Source: Roseiflexus sp.
Lineage (GTDB): Bacteria; Chloroflexota; Chloroflexia; Chloroflexales; Roseiflexaceae
Assembly: GCA_025062325.1 (NCBI GenBank)
Contig: JANXAL010000068.1
Location: 1-49,566 of the forward strand
Reading direction: 5' to 3'
Length of the DNA stretch: 49,566 nt
Each line of letters starts with the position of its first letter. The first letter of the stretch is position 1. Both the position numbers and the translations under genes were made by a program. Shown here one piece after another: positions 13,382 through 19,882 of the stretch. The notes beneath the pieces are model-generated. The model was not told where the DNA came from. It worked only from the letters and a program-made list of their open reading frames with translations, and searched no databases.

Positions 13382-14224
13382 ATGAGCGACACATCTTCTG
13401 CCGACGCCAGCATGTACCGCGCCACAGCAGTCGGCATTCTCGACTTTTCGCCCGCGAATCGCCAGAATCCCTCCCGCCGCCCCCAGTTGCGAATAACGGG
13501 ACCGCTCGGCGGCGATTTTCGCTTGCCAGTCCGGGTAATGCGCGAGATCCCCGGGCGCGAACTGCTCGACTCTGCACACCACGGTGTGCGGCTGCTGGTC
13601 GAAGGACGGCTGGAGTGGACCACATCTTCTGATAACGCGCTGCCTGCGCCGACGCTCGTTGCCAGCGCGGTACGCCCGGTCACTCCCGACGACGAAGATG
13701 GCTGCGACATCCACATGTGCGGTGAGATCACCGGACCTGCGCGCATCGGACGGCATCCGCTTCGCTCCAGCGTCGCGCTGGCGCAAGTGACGGTGCGGGT
13801 CCAGATACCGCGCACCCGCGCAGGGAGTCGCGCCATCCTCACCGAGACGGTGCGCATTCCAGTCGTTATCCCCCTCAACCATCCAGGCGCGCCTGCTCTC
13901 CTGCGCCCCGGCAATCGCGTCATCATCGAAGGCATGCTGGAACAGGCATTGCTGCCGCGCAGCGGGCCGGATGTTGAGCAGACGCTCGCAGACCTGGAAG
14001 CGACAGCCAGCCAGCGTGCGGCGTGGGTCACGACACCGGAGGAAGCACGCGCTGTCGAGCGCGACCACGCTCGACGGCGGTGGGAAGCGACTCACACCAT
14101 TATCCATCGGGTCGTCGCAGGATACGTCGAATTACTGCACGGCGCGCCCGCAACCATCCGTGAGGCGCGCGAACTACGCCGCGTTGCAATGCAACGCCGT
14201 GCGCAACGGCGGCAGGCATCATAA
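13382..14224 (+). CDS. Hypothetical protein, possible tandem OB-fold (SSB-like)
   Basis: 280 aa from ATG 13382, preceded by AAGGGGAGC as ribosome site; an upstream in-frame start at 13316 is not needed. Two beta-rich segments look alike. The first (about 10-95) holds ATAVGILDF, LPVRVMREIPG and GVRLLVEGRLEW. The second (about 105-205) holds DIHMCGEITGPARIG, LAQVTVRVQIPR, ETVRIPVVIPL and LLRPGNRVIIEGMLEQ. The GxxVxVEGxLE pattern is what single-stranded-DNA-binding OB folds show near the end of the domain. The last 80 residues are charged and helical, rich in Arg (RRVAMQRRAQRR), suggesting nucleic-acid contact. It is not a standard SSB, and the OB-fold idea is inference from pattern only. Confidence 0.7.
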   Translation: MSDTSSADASMYRATAVGILDFSPANRQNPSRRPQLRITGPLGGDFRLPVRVMREIPGRELLDSAHHGVRLLVEGRLEWTTSSDNALPAPTLVASAVRPVTPDDEDGCDIHMCGEITGPARIGRHPLRSSVALAQVTVRVQIPRTRAGSRAILTETVRIPVVIPLNHPGAPALLRPGNRVIIEGMLEQALLPRSGPDVEQTLADLEATASQRAAWVTTPEEARAVERDHARRRWEATHTIIHRVVAGYVELLHGAPATIREARELRRVAMQRRAQRRQAS

Positions 14225-14591
14225 ATGGTGGTAACCGGCGGTCGGTCATCCGGGCCGCCGAGACCAGGCCAGCCCACCTACTCCCCTCTTCCACCAGCGA
14301 GAACGTCGGCTGGCTTCGTATCACCGGCCCGGCGGGGCCGGCAGCGGGAACCCGCTGCACTGCACCCTGACAACGCCCATACCACGTCTCGCTTTTCGAC
14401 ACGCATGCATGCGCAGTTGCGCATCTGCTTTCGGAAAGAACCTCCTCGGCGCGCCACGCGCTAGCTACGTTCGTCCCATTGTCAGTCGCCGGTCAGTGCA
14501 GCCATGACTCATTGTGCGTCATTCACACTCCTGCTGCGCCATCCGGCGCTCATGACATCACTAGGAGGAAAACGCTCTCTTCACTCTCTAT
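14225..14591. other. Intergenic upstream of the orphan caspase-like gene
   Basis: No gene is supported. It contains a GC-rich inverted pair (CCGGCCCGGCGGGGCCGG near 14323) that may end transcription of the OB-fold-like gene, and the palindrome-like GCATGCATGC near 14404. Nothing else is recognised. Confidence 0.4.
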
Positions 14592-14653: not shown

Positions 14654-14697
14654 CCCGCGCAGGGACACACCAGCTTTCTGGACGTGTCCCGCGCGGG
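14654..14697 (+). promoter_or_regulatory. Strong hairpin in the leader of the 14752 gene
   Basis: Left arm CCCGCGCAGGGACAC (14654-14668) pairs with GTGTCCCGCGCGGG (14684-14697), with a single bulge, around a 15-nt loop. It ends 54 nt before the ATG and lacks a following T-tract, so it fits an mRNA leader structure or an attenuator better than a simple terminator. Confidence 0.45.
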
Positions 14698-14751
14698 ACG
14701 TCACGGAACGTTGGCGTGCTCTGCGCTCCTGAATTGCACCAGGAGACAGCA

Positions 14752-15186
14752 ATGCTTCACAACGTTCCAGTCCTGCCCACGACGTTCAAGAACCGCTTCA
14801 TTCTGGGTTACCCGGATCGTCGCATTCGGACAGCGATGAGTCAGCCGGCGTACCCGCTGTTCTTTGAACTGATCTGTCACGGTTCGTTGCCTGATAAGAA
14901 AGGCGAGACATTTGCGGTTCCATATGTAGAAGAAGCCGGTTCGCGGATAAAACCGCTGAATGCAGAGCAACTCTACGAAATCATTGTGACCCATCCTGCG
15001 TATATCCTCGGACAACCCGTCCGTCTGATCATGTGCTACGCAGGATACGGACCTAACTCGCTGGCGCAGCAACTCGCAGATCTCCTGGGAGCGCACGTGC
15101 TGGCAGCAGACAATCTTGTATGTGCATATACGCTTACTCCTCTCAATAATGGTCGCTGGATCATGTTCAAGCCGCGCCTGCAATGA
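14752..15186 (+). CDS. Orphan small protein resembling the C-terminal domain of RHS/polymorphic toxins, caspase-like His/Cys pattern
   Basis: 144 aa from ATG 14752, with AGGAGA just upstream; an earlier in-frame start at 14716 lacks such a site. Two segments stand out: FELICHGSLPDKKGE (His43) and QPVRLIMCYAGYG (Cys95), followed by NSLAQQLADLLGAHVLAAD and a C-terminal GRWIMFKPR. A His-Gly after one beta strand and a Cys-x-x-Gly after the next is the layout of caspase-like (DUF4347/CHAT-type) folds. By memory, the same QPIRLLSC...A.QLA..LG.PV.AP pattern occurs at the C-termini of RHS and related polymorphic toxins. Here it stands alone, with no RHS core, secretion signal or recognisable immunity gene beside it. 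Function is unknown; a protease or toxin-related role is inference. Confidence 0.65.
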   Translation: MLHNVPVLPTTFKNRFILGYPDRRIRTAMSQPAYPLFFELICHGSLPDKKGETFAVPYVEEAGSRIKPLNAEQLYEIIVTHPAYILGQPVRLIMCYAGYGPNSLAQQLADLLGAHVLAADNLVCAYTLTPLNNGRWIMFKPRLQ

Positions 15187-15202
15187 TAATGATCATGCTG
15201 TA

Positions 15203-15232
15203 GGTACAGGAGCGCGGTTGCGCCCCTGTACC
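15203..15232 (+). terminator. Rho-independent-like terminator after the 14752 gene
   Basis: Arms GGTACAGGAGCGC (15203-15215) and GCGCCCCTGTACC (15220-15232) pair with one mismatch around GGTT, followed by a pyrimidine-rich CTTCTTGCTTT. It begins 16 nt after the stop codon, so the 14752 gene appears to be transcribed alone. Confidence 0.7.
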
Positions 15233-15249
15233 CTTCTTGCTTTATACCG

Positions 15250-15960
15250 AGCCGTCAGCGAATAGCGAAGCGAGTACGTGAACGGCACGAATAAGCACAT
15301 GCAGCGGCAAAACGCAAGGGCGGGCGTGCTCTCCCCGCAGCGCGCTGTCGGCAAATGGAGAAGCGAATGAGCGAGCGGACACGAATGAGTGAGCGCTGGC
15401 CGCTTGCCCTTCGTCTCGCGCCTCTGGCCGTCAGCGAATAGGGAATTCAGATCAACGAACGGTCACGAATGAGCAATCATTGGCTGCTTGCCCTTTACCT
15501 CACGCCTCTGGACTGACGCCTCCCATCCATAGGCCCTTCAGCGCGAGCATAGAGATACGTATTTTCAACACCTTACCTCACGCCTCTGGACCAACGCCTC
15601 TCACCTTGTCTAAACTGACGCAGCAAACCTGAAATACCTGAACCTTCAGCGGAGGAGTTCACATATACCTCTAACGCTAATGCCAGGGCTTTCTCCACTG
15701 CCCGGAAAATACGCTGCCCTGGCGACCGGCTGGCCCGATGACTGCTATCCTTCTCATTCGGTTCAACACAGGTTACGTTCCAAGAGCGCCTCCGCAAACG
15801 CTGTACGCAGAGAGATCCATGCACCTATGCCGGGCTTTCATCGATGCCCACTCTGCCACGCGTAGCGCATGGAAACATGGTACGGCTCTGGGCGGGTTGC
15901 GCCAATAATGGCGAAAGCTGGATTTCCCATTAGTGACTGCCACATGCGCTCACAAGGACA
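15250..15960. repeat. Family C repeats (GCGAATA / CACGCCTCTGG units), no gene
   Basis: The stretch contains several imperfect copies of TCAGCGAATAGSGAA-like and CGAATGAGYGAGC-like units, and three of TTACCTCACGCCTCTGGA (near 15411, 15496 and 15572). Related GCGAATAAACGAATG units occur at 40814-40903 and near 47370. No open frame here shows protein-like composition, and none continues a neighbouring gene. Confidence 0.5.
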
Positions 15961-15963
15961 CCC

Positions 15964-16547
15964 CTCACGAGGGTCGATTTCTCCGGCTGACCCTCGCGTC
16001 GCATCGCCCGTTCCAGGCATCAGGACGCCCTGAGTCCCCCTTCTTCCACGAGGGGAGAAGGGAGCAGGGGAAGCTCGCAAGTGTAGATTTTTCCGGCAAG
16101 CCCTTCCGTTGCATCGCCCGTTTTGAGCGTCGGGATGCGCAAACTCCCCCTTCCCCCCGCATGCGGGGGCAAAAAGGGGGGTGGGAGAAGGGGAGCAGGG
16201 GGGATGAGGGGAAGAGGGCGTCAGAACGCGCACACGCCCCCTTCTCTCCCCAACCCCCGCATGCAGGGGGCGCAGGGGGAAGCCCTTGAGCAATCGATGC
16301 ACGTCCTCCCCCAACCCCCGCATGCAGGGGGCGCGGATGCAACGATCCACGCGATGGTACGCGAGCGGCTTCCCCAACCCCCGCATGCAGGGGGCGCAGG
16401 GGGCGGGAGAGGAGGGAAACAAGGATTCTAGGACACCCTGACTCCCCCCTTCTCCCCTTGTGGGAGAAGAGGGGCAGGGGGGATGAGGGGGAAAGGGCCT
16501 CGTCCGCGGAAACAACGCCTCGCACCCTAAAAACGCTTACAGGGGAG
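15964..16547. repeat. Composite MITE-like repeat cluster
   Basis: The cluster starts with a left terminus near 15964 (CTCACGAGGGTCGATTTC) and a second one at 16074 (CTCGCAAGTGTAGATTTTTC). The second copy is almost identical over about 80 bp to the one at 44140, but then carries a GCATGC hairpin where the other has CACCAGG. Three GCATGC repeats (16248-16397) and a CTTGT hairpin follow, and a right terminus ends near 16547. It spans the space to the transglutaminase gene end. No gene is seen. Confidence 0.65.
16248..16397. repeat. CRISPR-like mini-array: three 26-nt repeats, two unique spacers
   Basis: Identical 26-nt repeats CCCCAACCCCCGCATGC plus AGGGGGCGC lie at 16248-16273, 16309-16334 and 16372-16397, separated by unrelated 35-nt and 37-nt sequences (period 61 and 63). 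Each repeat is a near-palindrome around GCATGC. The spacing matches CRISPR arrays, but the array is tiny, no adaptation genes are near, and it is embedded in a MITE-like cluster. Confidence 0.4.
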
Positions 16548-16631
16548 ACGCTCATCCAGCACTGTTATCGCCAAGATCGCAGGTGGCGCGCTTCCTCACG
16601 CGCGTCCTGCACGACTGTCATCACGTTCGAG

Positions 16632-19112
16632 TTACTGTGGACGACGCGGGAGGCGCCGCTGCGCAGGCACTGCACGAGATCTATCGCGCAATCGCGCAAT
16701 TTCCCTCGAGGGGTAGAATGCTGCACCAATTCGACCAATAAGGAGCTTCAGCAGCTCACGCCGCAGCGCGTGCCAGTTCTCGACCGGCAGCGCGGCGGGC
16801 GCCGCGTGGGTCGGGTGATACCGCTCAACGACAAAATCGCCGACAATGCGATCAATGACATCCTTCTGATGAGGAATGCGTTCCCGGATCAGCATGGCAT
16901 ACTCATACGGCGTCGCATCAGGCGGCGCTGCAATGCCAGCCCATTCCGCCAGGCGCGTCAGGCGCGCATAGGCGGCGACAACCGGTGACAGACCGCGCAC
17001 ATCCCAGTGCAGCCAGAGAAACAGAGCGCCGATCAGCATCGGTATGAGCGCCAGCGCCCCGCCCACGATGGCAGCCAGATGCAACTGCTCCTGCGCACGT
17101 CGCACTTCGACCTCGCGTTGCAATGTGCTGTCGCCGCCAGCGGCAGAACCGGTGTTACGCTCGATCATCGCGCGTAGCATAGCTTCCGGGTCGCTCAATA
17201 CGCCCCCCAATCCGTTGGTGATCCCTGGTCGTTCCGTTTCACTAGCCGGAGGAAACGCCGGACGCACCGGGACGCTAGCGTAAGGCGCAGGCGTCGGCTC
17301 GAAACGCTGCCAGCCGTAGCCTGGGAAATAGATTTCAGGCCAGCTATGAGCAATATGCTCTCGCACCAGGTACACCTGCCGATCCGGGTCGAATTCGCCG
17401 CCAGCGTATCCCTGCACCCACCGTGCCGGCACGCCCTCGGCGCGCAGAAGCACGACCATCGCCGAGGCAAAATCGTCGCAGTAGCCGCCTGGCGCATCGA
17501 ACAGGAACCAGTCGACCCAGTCGCGGTCTTCTGGCGGGATCGGACGCTGATCGTTGTACGGCAGCGTGCGCAGATACTCCTGAATCGCCAGCGCCTTGTC
17601 GTAAGGCGTGACTGCGCCAGCGTTGCGGACGATGGAGGCTGCCAGCGCGCGCACCCGTGGCGGCAACGTCTCGGGGAGCTGGAGGTACGCCACCCGCACC
17701 CATTCAGGGTAGACGGTTCCGCTTTCACGTAGACTCTGCTCATCGACTGTGGAAAGATACGTGGCGACGGTATAGGTTTGCGTCGCCTCCAGCGGCGCTT
17801 CGGCGACAACAGTGGCAATTTCGGTATAGTTGGGCAACAGTTCGCCAGATACCGCCAGGTATCCGTGCTGGATCAACACCGGCAGGCTGGTGGACGCCAG
17901 CGCGCCGCCGACCATCACCAGCCTCTCGGTGCGCGTCTGCGCCAGTTCAATCGTCGTGGTCACCAGGGTACGACCACGCAGTTCGGGCTGTTCAAGCCGG
18001 ACGCCAGGCGCCAGCGGCGTCTGCGCCGCTTCCGCCGTCGCCACTCCTAGCGCTGCGCGCGCCCGCTCACCGACCATATTCTGCCACATGCGACCAGTGT
18101 AGCGATCGAACGCCGCAGCGCGCCAGTAACTGTACTCGGCAGATCGCACCGTCATAACCAGCGCCGTGCCCACTTGACGGGGACCGCCAACCTGCGCGTT
18201 ACGGGTCAGGAACGCACCGGTTGATCCTGGCGGCGCGTTGATCGTGCTGAACGCCTCTTGCCACCCCTCGCGTAGTGCCGCGATAGGGGCGCGAAGTGTG
18301 CGCCAGAGGCGTGCCAGATGTTCATTGTCTGGTCGGTTCGGCAGAAAGGCAGTGATGATCACCAGAACCACGAAGGTCAGAAACGCAGCCAACAGCACGC
18401 GCGCCAGCAGAAAGTCGGGGAACTCAACATGCGAGGATCGCCAGAGACGCCGACGGCAGTCGATGTGCTGGTAGGCGAGCAGAAGCAATCCAGCTATCAG
18501 AAAAACAAAGAACAATCCGGTCGGTTTGGGCCAGGCATAGGTGTAATTGATCAGAATGATGCTTGCCTGCAGCGCAAGAGCAATCCAGGCGCGCTGATGA
18601 CGAAAGATGAGCCATCCTGTTACATACCCAATCCCCCAGATTATCAGTGCCAGGATCAGGACGAAGAGTACGATATCCTCGCCGCGCCCGCCTGCCTGGA
18701 GCGTGCGCAGCCAGATGAGCGTGCGCAGCGCAACTTCGGCAGCAACATCGCCCCATGTTGTCAGGCGCTGCGCCTTTGCCGCGCCGAACTCAGCCGCCGT
18801 TTGCGCGCGGACCATCGGGCTGATCTGCTGAATGACAACGACGCCCCCAAGGAGCGAGGCTAACGGATGCGCCAGCCAGGGAGGCAGCCAGACGACCCGC
18901 GCAAAGAGCGTGCCCACGAGGAGCGCTGCCAGACCAATGCCTGTCAGCATCGTGAGACCGTCCGCCCAGTTTGCGACTTCAAGACTGCGCGCCATGCTCC
19001 AGGTGATGACAACGGCAAACAGAAATGGGAGCACAAGCGGTCCCAGCTCAAGCCGGGCGAACCAGGAACGGGGCGGGGTCTCGTTTGGAAGAGTCGCAAC
19101 CGAAGAACTCAT
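16632..19112 (-). CDS. Membrane transglutaminase-like protein (DUF3488/transglutaminase type)
   Basis: 826 aa from ATG 19112, which overlaps the tatD stop (ATGA); an in-frame start at 19142 would run further into tatD. N-terminal region: at least six hydrophobic segments (residues about 20-270). A large extracytoplasmic part follows with a papain-like transglutaminase core. The catalytic Cys sits in GGYCDDFASAMVVLLRAEGV, the His in REHIAHSWPEIYFPGYGW and the Asp just after it in RFEPTP context. Another hydrophobic segment (AAIVGGALALIPMLIGALFLW) and a C-terminal cytoplasmic DUF4129-like tail complete it. Family members are common in bacteria but rarely characterised; proteolysis or crosslinking at the cell surface is likely. 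In many genomes such genes neighbour MoxR ATPases and DUF58 proteins, which are absent here. Confidence 0.88.
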   Translation of the reverse strand: MSSSVATLPNETPPRSWFARLELGPLVLPFLFAVVITWSMARSLEVANWADGLTMLTGIGLAALLVGTLFARVVWLPPWLAHPLASLLGGVVVIQQISPMVRAQTAAEFGAAKAQRLTTWGDVAAEVALRTLIWLRTLQAGGRGEDIVLFVLILALIIWGIGYVTGWLIFRHQRAWIALALQASIILINYTYAWPKPTGLFFVFLIAGLLLLAYQHIDCRRRLWRSSHVEFPDFLLARVLLAAFLTFVVLVIITAFLPNRPDNEHLARLWRTLRAPIAALREGWQEAFSTINAPPGSTGAFLTRNAQVGGPRQVGTALVMTVRSAEYSYWRAAAFDRYTGRMWQNMVGERARAALGVATAEAAQTPLAPGVRLEQPELRGRTLVTTTIELAQTRTERLVMVGGALASTSLPVLIQHGYLAVSGELLPNYTEIATVVAEAPLEATQTYTVATYLSTVDEQSLRESGTVYPEWVRVAYLQLPETLPPRVRALAASIVRNAGAVTPYDKALAIQEYLRTLPYNDQRPIPPEDRDWVDWFLFDAPGGYCDDFASAMVVLLRAEGVPARWVQGYAGGEFDPDRQVYLVREHIAHSWPEIYFPGYGWQRFEPTPAPYASVPVRPAFPPASETERPGITNGLGGVLSDPEAMLRAMIERNTGSAAGGDSTLQREVEVRRAQEQLHLAAIVGGALALIPMLIGALFLWLHWDVRGLSPVVAAYARLTRLAEWAGIAAPPDATPYEYAMLIRERIPHQKDVIDRIVGDFVVERYHPTHAAPAALPVENWHALRRELLKLLIGRIGAAFYPSREIARLRDRSRAVPAQRRLPRRPQ

Positions 19113-19882
19113 AGCCCAAAAACCGCCGCTGCGTTGCGCCACGTCGCCTGGGCCAGATCTTCGAGCGCCATGCCGCGCAGACCAGCAATTCGTTCGGCAA
19201 TCAGACGTACATACGCAGGTTCGTTCCGTTTCCCTCGGAAAGGATGCGGCGCCAGATAAGGACTATCGGTTTCGATCAGAATGCGATCAAGCGGCGCGCG
19301 CCGCGCGACATCGTGCAGAACGACAGCCTTCGGAAATGTGACCGGACCGCTGAACGAGAGGTAGAACCCGATGTCCAGACATGCACGCGCATACGCCCAG
19401 TCGCCAGAGAACGAGTGCATGATGCCGGAGAGACCGCGCGCCGCGTCACGCAGCACGCGGATGGTATTATCGTGCGCATCACGGCTATGAATGACCACGG
19501 GAAGGCGCAGATCGCGCGCCAGATCGAGTTGAGCGCGGAAACACGCCTCCTGCACAGCGGCAGGCGCAGCATTCCAGTAGTAGTCGAGACCAATTTCGCC
19601 GATGGCGATCACCTTCGGCTGCTTCGCCAGGGCGCGCACCTGATCGAGCCAGTCGTCCGGCAGATCGGCGACACGGTTGGGCTGCACGCCGACGACCGCA
19701 TAGATCGGTTCGTGTTGCGCTGCCAGCGCAACCGCGGCACGCGACGTTGCCAGATCGTAGCCGATTTCGACAATTCGCACCACTCCTGCCGCGGCGGCGC
19801 GCTCCAATACAGCGCTGCGATCCGCATCGAACTGTGCAGAGCCCAGGTGAGCGTGGGTGTCGATCAAACGCAGTGTGTTCAC
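19109..19882 (-). CDS. tatD: TatD-family metal-dependent deoxyribonuclease
   Basis: 257 aa from GTG 19882 (VNTLRLIDTHAHLG), chosen because a -10 box lies 6 nt upstream and family members start just before the DTHAHL metal motif; ATG 19921 would extend it by 13 residues unlike the family. Metal ligands are visible in DTHAHLG, AIGEIGLDYYWN, VVIHSRDAHD, GIMHSFSGDW and LIETDSPYLAPHPFRGKRNEP. TatD proteins are TIM-barrel nucleases acting on DNA ends and are linked to DNA repair and turnover. The stop overlaps the transglutaminase start, so the two are coupled despite unrelated roles. Confidence 0.93.
   Translation of the reverse strand: MNTLRLIDTHAHLGSAQFDADRSAVLERAAAAGVVRIVEIGYDLATSRAAVALAAQHEPIYAVVGVQPNRVADLPDDWLDQVRALAKQPKVIAIGEIGLDYYWNAAPAAVQEACFRAQLDLARDLRLPVVIHSRDAHDNTIRVLRDAARGLSGIMHSFSGDWAYARACLDIGFYLSFSGPVTFPKAVVLHDVARRAPLDRILIETDSPYLAPHPFRGKRNEPAYVRLIAERIAGLRGMALEDLAQATWRNAAAVFGL

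What the first reader, a model, noticed from the sequence alone, without database searches (positions are those of the whole stretch)
14654..15232. Orphan 144-aa protein with a caspase-like His...Cys pattern, flanked by a leader hairpin and its own terminator
The gene is isolated and has a strong ribosome site, a palindrome and long hairpin upstream and a terminator 16 nt after the stop. Its protein shows FELICHGS (His43) and RLIMCYAGYG (Cys95), plus an AQQLADLLGAHVLAAD segment reminiscent of polymorphic-toxin C-termini and of caspase-like DUF4347/CHAT domains. A free-standing domain of this kind, with neither carrier nor immunity gene, is unusual. It could be a cytosolic cysteine-protease effector or a defused toxin remnant.
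Basis: partly seen in the sequence, partly recalled or inferred. Interest (0 to 1): 0.6.

Follow-up and report, generated by a model that had tools for sequence, protein, structure and literature searches.

The report
Domesticated caspase-like toxin, RNA leader
A small gene kept by Roseiflexus-type photosynthetic bacteria encodes a predicted caspase-like protein-cutting enzyme related to bacterial weapon toxins, but it has lost the delivery and antidote genes those toxins carry and instead follows a newly recognised structured RNA.

Summary
In detail: a 144-aa gene (14752-15186) with a strong ribosome site, an upstream hairpin and a terminator-like hairpin. The caspase hunch holds for fold and conservation. 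His43 and Cys95 are invariant in all 47 relatives examined; the confident AlphaFold model (pLDDT 93) aligns best with clan CD cysteine peptidases; the domain is the C-terminal toxin of FHA/CdiA-like, RHS, WXG and HINT carriers. In 32 of 35 contig loci, and all three plasmid loci examined, an immunity-type gene lies directly downstream. The window gene and its eight orthologues lack carrier and immunity gene, sit at one conserved position, form one clade (99/94; eight of nine in the tree) and evolve under purifying selection (dN/dS mostly 0.16-0.38). So it is no remnant, but a domesticated toxin-type domain, probably an active cytosolic peptidase (activity inferred). Directly upstream lie an SSB-like gene and, at 14227-14384, a structured RNA with covariation, absent from Rfam and present in exactly the genomes that hold the peptidase. 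A conserved leader hairpin covers the ribosome site. Most likely the leader holds translation down until a signal arrives; substrate and signal are unknown.

The parts
13382..14224 (+). orf302: SSB-like protein with two OB folds and a helical tail
   Evidence: Pfam SSB weak (E 0.006); AlphaFold pLDDT 84.5; Foldseek best matches are two-OB SSBs of Thermus and Deinococcus, E 4.5e-9; directly upstream of the peptidase gene in all orthologous loci that cover it
14227..14384 (+). structured RNA candidate R1: closing stem TGGTA/TACCA around further helices
   Evidence: 12 of 47 pairs change on both sides, covariation score above all 500 shuffles; no Rfam match; found in the same 9 of 100 relatives as the free-standing peptidase gene, same place
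14654..14697 (+). leader hairpin GGGACAC-CCAG/CTGG-GTGTCCC
   Evidence: conserved in 7 genomes and recognisable in G010; z -5.0 with the next hairpin; only perfect copy in the genome
14722..14750 (+). hairpin pairing CTCCTG with the ribosome site CAGGAG
   Evidence: CTCC(T)...(A)GGAG kept in all nine loci; helix 3, 82.5% of cells paired
14752..15186 (+). free-standing clan CD-like cysteine peptidase domain, 144 aa; His43 at 14878-14880, Cys95 at 15034-15036
15203..15232 (+). terminator-like hairpin
   Evidence: z -4.0; strong hairpins after the stop in G005, G004, G002, G009
16632..19142 (-). TgpA-like transglutaminase gene: conserved downstream landmark, not part of the unit
   Evidence: Pfam Transglut_core and TgpA_N; same order in the genus loci and G009

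Best explanation
The gene encodes a small cytosolic cysteine peptidase of the caspase-like (clan CD) fold, with His43 and Cys95 as catalytic pair. [quoted passage not shown] it was fixed once in the ancestor of this Roseiflexus-like family, without carrier and without the protein immunity gene, and is kept by selection. Because no immunity gene guards it, I infer that the cell controls it at the RNA level: a long leader holds structured RNA R1 and, at its end, a hairpin that covers the ribosome site, so that translation is low until a signal opens it; the peptidase then cuts a protein of its own cell, either as a stress or infection response or as ordinary regulated proteolysis. Shown: homology to the toxin family, invariance of the pair, fold prediction, single origin, synteny, purifying selection, absence of immunity gene, RNA covariation. 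Inferred: catalysis, RNA control, signal, substrate, outcome.
For: His43 and Cys95 invariant in 47 of 47 sequences, each just after a beta strand (38-41, 90-93). VIA-align second look: MARTX cysteine protease domain Z 9.5, TcdB CPD 7.8, Tce1 7.6, SAVED-CHAT 7.1, then craspase CHAT, legumain, clostripain-type C11 and metacaspase; almost all listed rows are clan CD. Relatives are the C-terminal domain of FHA (L017, L035), RHS (L010, L036), WXG100-type (L045) and PT-HINT (L052) proteins; a ~130-aa immunity-type family directly follows in 32 of 35 loci plus all 3 annotated plasmid loci, E <= 4e-31, and in none of the nine orthologous loci, nor convincingly anywhere in the genus genomes. Orphans are one clade 99/94. 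Same gene order in the genus and G009; SSB-like gene upstream even at 31% identity. dN/dS 0.16-0.53, mostly under 0.38. R1 covariation 0 of 500 shuffles and exact co-occurrence.
Against: Foldseek itself gives no significant PDB match (best E 0.06, glycerol kinase on top), and Z 9.5 is only modestly above the background of 7-8 stated by the tool. No sequence match in the PDB and no Pfam family for the window protein. The His-Cys distance could not be measured. In the two deepest orthologues the Gly after the His is Thr. The orphan clade differs from the toxins next to the Cys (Met for Ser at 94, Ala/Val for Thr/Ser at 97), so specificity may have changed. Rooting is unsettled: the toxins could descend from the free form. 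RNA control is inferred from structure only.
Confidence: 0.62

Rival explanations
1. A defused toxin remnant: a stranded cassette drifting towards loss.
For: Toxin-type domain with no carrier and no immunity gene; orphan toxin cassettes are common in polymorphic-toxin loci (own knowledge).
Against: Present in every genome of the genus and in three further genera at one place; dN/dS mostly 0.16-0.38; His and Cys never lost; leader RNA conserved.
Confidence: 0.03
2. A three-part defence or self-killing module: the SSB-like protein and the structured RNA sense foreign or damaged nucleic acid and release the peptidase, which arrests the cell.
For: Tight adjacency of a two-OB SSB-like protein, a single-copy structured RNA and a peptidase of toxin descent; exact co-occurrence of RNA and free-standing peptidase in 9 of 100 genomes; SSB-like gene in all of them.
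Against: Fixed chromosomal place next to phoU, acyP and tgpA-like genes rather than a mobile island; no PADLOC match; SSB-like relatives outside the family occur next to integrase- or recombinase-like frames without RNA or peptidase.
Confidence: 0.15
3. R1 acts in trans as an RNA inhibitor of the peptidase, replacing the immunity protein (works like a type III toxin-antitoxin pair).
For: RNA lies upstream of a toxin-type gene that lacks its protein antidote; strong own fold.
Against: No tandem repeats as in ToxI-type antitoxins; no promoter or terminator of its own seen (one search gives none); a cis leader is simpler.
Confidence: 0.08
4. The domain is catalytically dead and serves as a binding or decoy domain.
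For: Gly after His is lost in two deep orthologues; residues beside Cys differ from the toxins.
Against: Complete invariance of His43 and Cys95 down to 31% identity.
Confidence: 0.12

Closest known systems
Tox-Caspase domains of polymorphic toxins (Zhang et al. 2012, PMC3482391)
   Same: caspase-like fold with H and C, C-terminal toxin domain on RHS, WXG and other carriers, immunity gene beside it; reported there in actinobacteria, proteobacteria, chloroflexi and others
   Different: here free-standing, with no carrier and no immunity gene, vertically inherited; the immunity family found beside the relatives gives no Pfam match above cut-off, whereas that paper lists Imm36 (DUF600) and Imm57
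MARTX and clostridial-toxin cysteine protease domains (C80, CPD)
   Same: best structural matches (Z 9.5 to 7.8); similar His-to-Cys spacing (45 in TcdB per PMC13323088, 52 here)
   Different: those are internal autoprocessing domains of about 200 residues switched on by inositol phosphate (own knowledge); this is a 144-aa stand-alone protein
Tce1/Tce2 of Pseudomonas aeruginosa (PMC13323088)
   Same: putative clan CD-like cysteine protease effectors with His and Cys; Tce1 Z 7.6
   Different: carried by the T6SS tube; no secretion link seen here
CHAT proteases of craspase and SAVED-CHAT
   Same: clan CD fold matches (Z 7.1 to 4.5), proteases run by a nucleic-acid signal
   Different: those carry sensor domains on the same chain or complex; here only neighbourhood with an SSB-like gene and an RNA
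Orphan rhs toxin modules (PMC7043789)
   Same: a toxin part kept without its delivery part and used inside its own cell
   Different: that case works as a type II toxin-antitoxin pair with a protein antitoxin

Membership tests
Clan CD (caspase-like) cysteine peptidase | alpha/beta fold of the caspase-haemoglobinase type | tested here: met
   AlphaFold pLDDT 93.3; nearly all VIA-align rows are clan CD, Z up to 9.5 over 117 residues; Foldseek E not significant
Clan CD (caspase-like) cysteine peptidase | catalytic His (usually HG) and Cys, each after a core strand | tested here: met
   His43 and Cys95 invariant in 47 of 47, HG in 45 of 47; strands 38-41 and 90-93
Clan CD (caspase-like) cysteine peptidase | His and Cys side chains within reach of each other | not testable with these tools
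Clan CD (caspase-like) cysteine peptidase | peptide-bond cleavage that needs the Cys | not testable with these tools
   needs the bench
Tox-Caspase polymorphic toxin domain | homology to C-terminal domains of polymorphic-toxin carriers | tested here: met
   RHS protein L010 found by the window protein, E 1.5e-5; FHA, WXG and HINT carriers
Tox-Caspase polymorphic toxin | delivery part on the same protein | tested here: not met
   144 aa, conserved start with in-frame stops just upstream in three orthologues
Tox-Caspase polymorphic toxin | cognate immunity gene next door | tested here: not met
   none in nine orthologous loci, against 32 of 35 toxin loci; none in G000, no convincing match in the genus
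DUF4347 (PF14252) | Pfam match above the gathering score | tested here: not met
   window protein none; L036 23.0 bits against 24.6, L011 14.4
Peptidase C80 / CPD | inositol-phosphate site and autoprocessing of a large toxin | not tested
   no larger protein is present; site not examined
CHAT peptidase | Pfam CHAT match | tested here: not met
   no Pfam match, although CHAT structures appear among the fold matches
Known Rfam RNA (for R1) | match to any Rfam 15 family | tested here: not met
   best 22.5 bits against a gathering score of 50 in the window; only tRNAs in three orthologous loci

The most novel reading that the evidence does not exclude
The SSB-like protein, structured RNA R1 and the caspase-like peptidase form one functional unit in which RNA, bound by the SSB-like protein or acting as inhibitor, replaces the lost immunity protein and releases a self-directed protease on a nucleic-acid signal: a chromosomally fixed RNA-controlled protease module made from a domesticated weapon.
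Probability: 0.17. Interest if true: 0.85.

Novelty: new variant of a known kind. Interest (0 to 1): 0.58.

Why it matters
Caspase-like domains are known as parts of bacterial weapons and of nucleic-acid-triggered immune proteases. A weapon domain that lost carrier and antidote, was fixed once in a lineage and is retained under purifying selection with an intact predicted active site gives a clean case of toxin domestication. The linked structured RNA and SSB-like gene make a directly testable question: how does a cell tolerate an unguarded protease, and does RNA do the guarding? The wider toxin domain and its immunity family, found here in five phyla, also lack Pfam families.

Tried and rejected
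Remnant reading: rejected by synteny, selection and invariance. Search for an immunity gene beside or elsewhere (A5 profile): nothing convincing. Pfam, NCBIfam and PADLOC for the window protein: no match. PDB by sequence: no match (one 0.21 chance hit). Phage records by tblastn: none. Viral structure library: one phage minor capsid protein, E 3.4e-5, not followed. DUF4347 in Chloroflexota: none, but the control was silent too, so uninformative. R1 outside the family: one weak hit in G343 (29 bits) that looks like a protein-coding (HisF-like) stretch, judged chance; antisense self-matches score about 31 bits. SSB-like relatives in the order (G037, G056, G055, G057, G014): no R1, no peptidase. 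The search for related loci with the broad alignment A2 failed for lack of conserved stretches; A4 worked. A pseudoknot between the first loop (GUUGUC) and GACAAC near the 3' end of R1 was seen by eye only.

Full report
Observation. The gene 14752-15186 (+), 144 aa, is present as described with its ribosome site, leader hairpin 14654-14697 and terminator-like hairpin 15203-15232. The window is a contig of a 4.7-Mb genome. The genus is Roseiflexus or very near it; this rests on the single contig of G003, 5,801,598 bases long, which I recall as the size of the Roseiflexus sp. RS-1 chromosome, and it is not verified here.

Real gene. All six genomes of the genus hold one copy (54-80% identity), as do G009 (45%) and, far more diverged, G010 and G007 (about 31%). 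NG86 dN/dS between orthologues is 0.16-0.38, with one pair of very close sequences at 0.53. Gene order phoU - acylphosphatase - SSB-like gene - target - TgpA-like transglutaminase is the same across the genus and in G009 wherever the contigs reach, and the SSB-like gene is directly upstream even in G010 and G007. The free-standing proteins (eight of the nine were put in the tree) form one clade, support 99/94, in 98% of bootstrap trees. This is vertical inheritance from one acquisition or release, not a remnant.

Kin. The domain recurs as the C-terminus of polymorphic-toxin carriers: an RHS protein in the same order (L010), a 1445-aa FHA/CdiA-like protein of Rhizobium (L017), FHA in Ottowia, RHS in a Lachnospiraceae bacterium, WXG100-type in Streptomyces, PT-HINT in Lentzea. 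A scan of 84,980 genomes gave 35 loci in Actinomycetota, Pseudomonadota, Bacillota and Verrucomicrobiota. A profile of the downstream genes (A5; consensus TDGEWxWPxDLAYYVxxYxVxLPxEFL) finds a member directly downstream in 32 of 35 of them and in all three annotated plasmid loci, but in none of the nine orthologous loci and nowhere convincingly in the genus. That pairing is the usual mark of toxin and immunity; function is inferred. No member has a Pfam or NCBIfam name, apart from sub-threshold DUF4347 matches of two toxins.

Active site and fold. Over 47 sequences His43, Cys95 and Gly98 are invariant, and Gly44 in 45. AlphaFold on nine sequences gives pLDDT 93.3. Foldseek alone is not significant, but the VIA-align second look ranks MARTX CPD (Z 9.5, 2.7 A, 117 residues), TcdB CPD, Tce1, SAVED-CHAT, craspase, legumain, C11 and metacaspase: a consistent clan CD list. 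The published Tce1/Tce2 work reads the same His/Cys pattern the same way (PMC13323088), and Zhang et al. 2012 already describe C-terminal Tox-Caspase domains as likely toxins (PMC3482391). So the fold and the idea of a caspase-like toxin are known; the unguarded, fixed, free-standing form is what is new here. Residues next to the nucleophile differ between orphans (Met94, Ala/Val97) and toxins (Ser94, Thr/Ser97), which may mean a changed specificity.

Beyond the coordinates. The 527 bases between the SSB-like gene and the target hold two conserved blocks; 14300-14399 is 86% identical to G009, more than either gene. The first block, 14227-14384, folds into a closed multi-helix RNA; on the model-fitted alignment 12 of 47 pairs have double changes, 91.4% of cells pair, and the covariation score beats all 500 shuffles and all slid controls. 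The alignment was fitted to this structure, which favours it; the helix-by-helix listing, and the RNAalifold counts on a plain MAFFT alignment (12 pairs), point the same way. No Rfam family matches. In 100 relatives its covariance model finds one true copy in exactly the nine genomes that hold the free-standing peptidase gene. The second block is the leader hairpin, followed by CTCCTG...CAGGAG, which covers the ribosome site in all nine loci; covariation there is weak, so this rests on conservation and folding energy. The SSB-like protein is predicted as two OB folds with a helical tail, closest to Thermus and Deinococcus SSB.

Mechanism proposed. An unguarded peptidase needs another kind of restraint; the conserved leader with a buried ribosome site is the obvious candidate, as a riboswitch-like or thermosensor-like control, and the cell itself is the likely place of action, since no secretion signal or carrier is seen. 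Whether the outcome is growth arrest or ordinary regulated proteolysis cannot be told. The SSB-like gene may be a partner or only a co-transcribed neighbour.

Verdict. The caspase-like reading is well supported at the level of fold and conservation, catalysis is untested, the remnant reading is rejected. New variant of a known kind, with a new RNA candidate beside it.

Noticed in passing
window 14227-14384 (+): Conserved structured RNA (model R1) with covariation, no Rfam match, single copy, only in the nine genomes that hold the free-standing peptidase gene; possible pseudoknot between the first loop and the 3' GACAAC.
   Followed up: yes
L035-L069 and L011, L016, L017, directly downstream of the toxin domains: A ~130-aa immunity-type family (profile A5; TDGEWxW...YYVxxYxVxLPxEFL) without a Pfam match above cut-off; in several Streptomyces loci it is fused to a further domain of about 200 aa.
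   Followed up: partly
L125, L126, L127, L128, L108 (G056, G037, G055, G057, G014): Relatives of the SSB-like orf302 elsewhere in the order, in at least some cases next to integrase- or recombinase-like frames, with neither R1 nor the peptidase.
   Followed up: partly
L015 (E. coli plasmid CP088525.1) and similar E. coli records: A piece of the same toxin domain (37% over about 72 residues) just downstream of an Rhs-core-like frame and insertion-sequence remains.
   Followed up: no
A0A8S5P2H5: A predicted phage minor capsid protein whose fold matches the window protein (E 3.4e-5, 21% identity): perhaps a MuF-type carrier of the same toxin domain.
   Followed up: no
window 15240-16600: About 1.4 kb between the target and the transglutaminase gene with repeated short GC-rich stretches (CCCCTTCTCCC and CCGCATGCGGG type), poorly conserved in the genus.
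   Followed up: no
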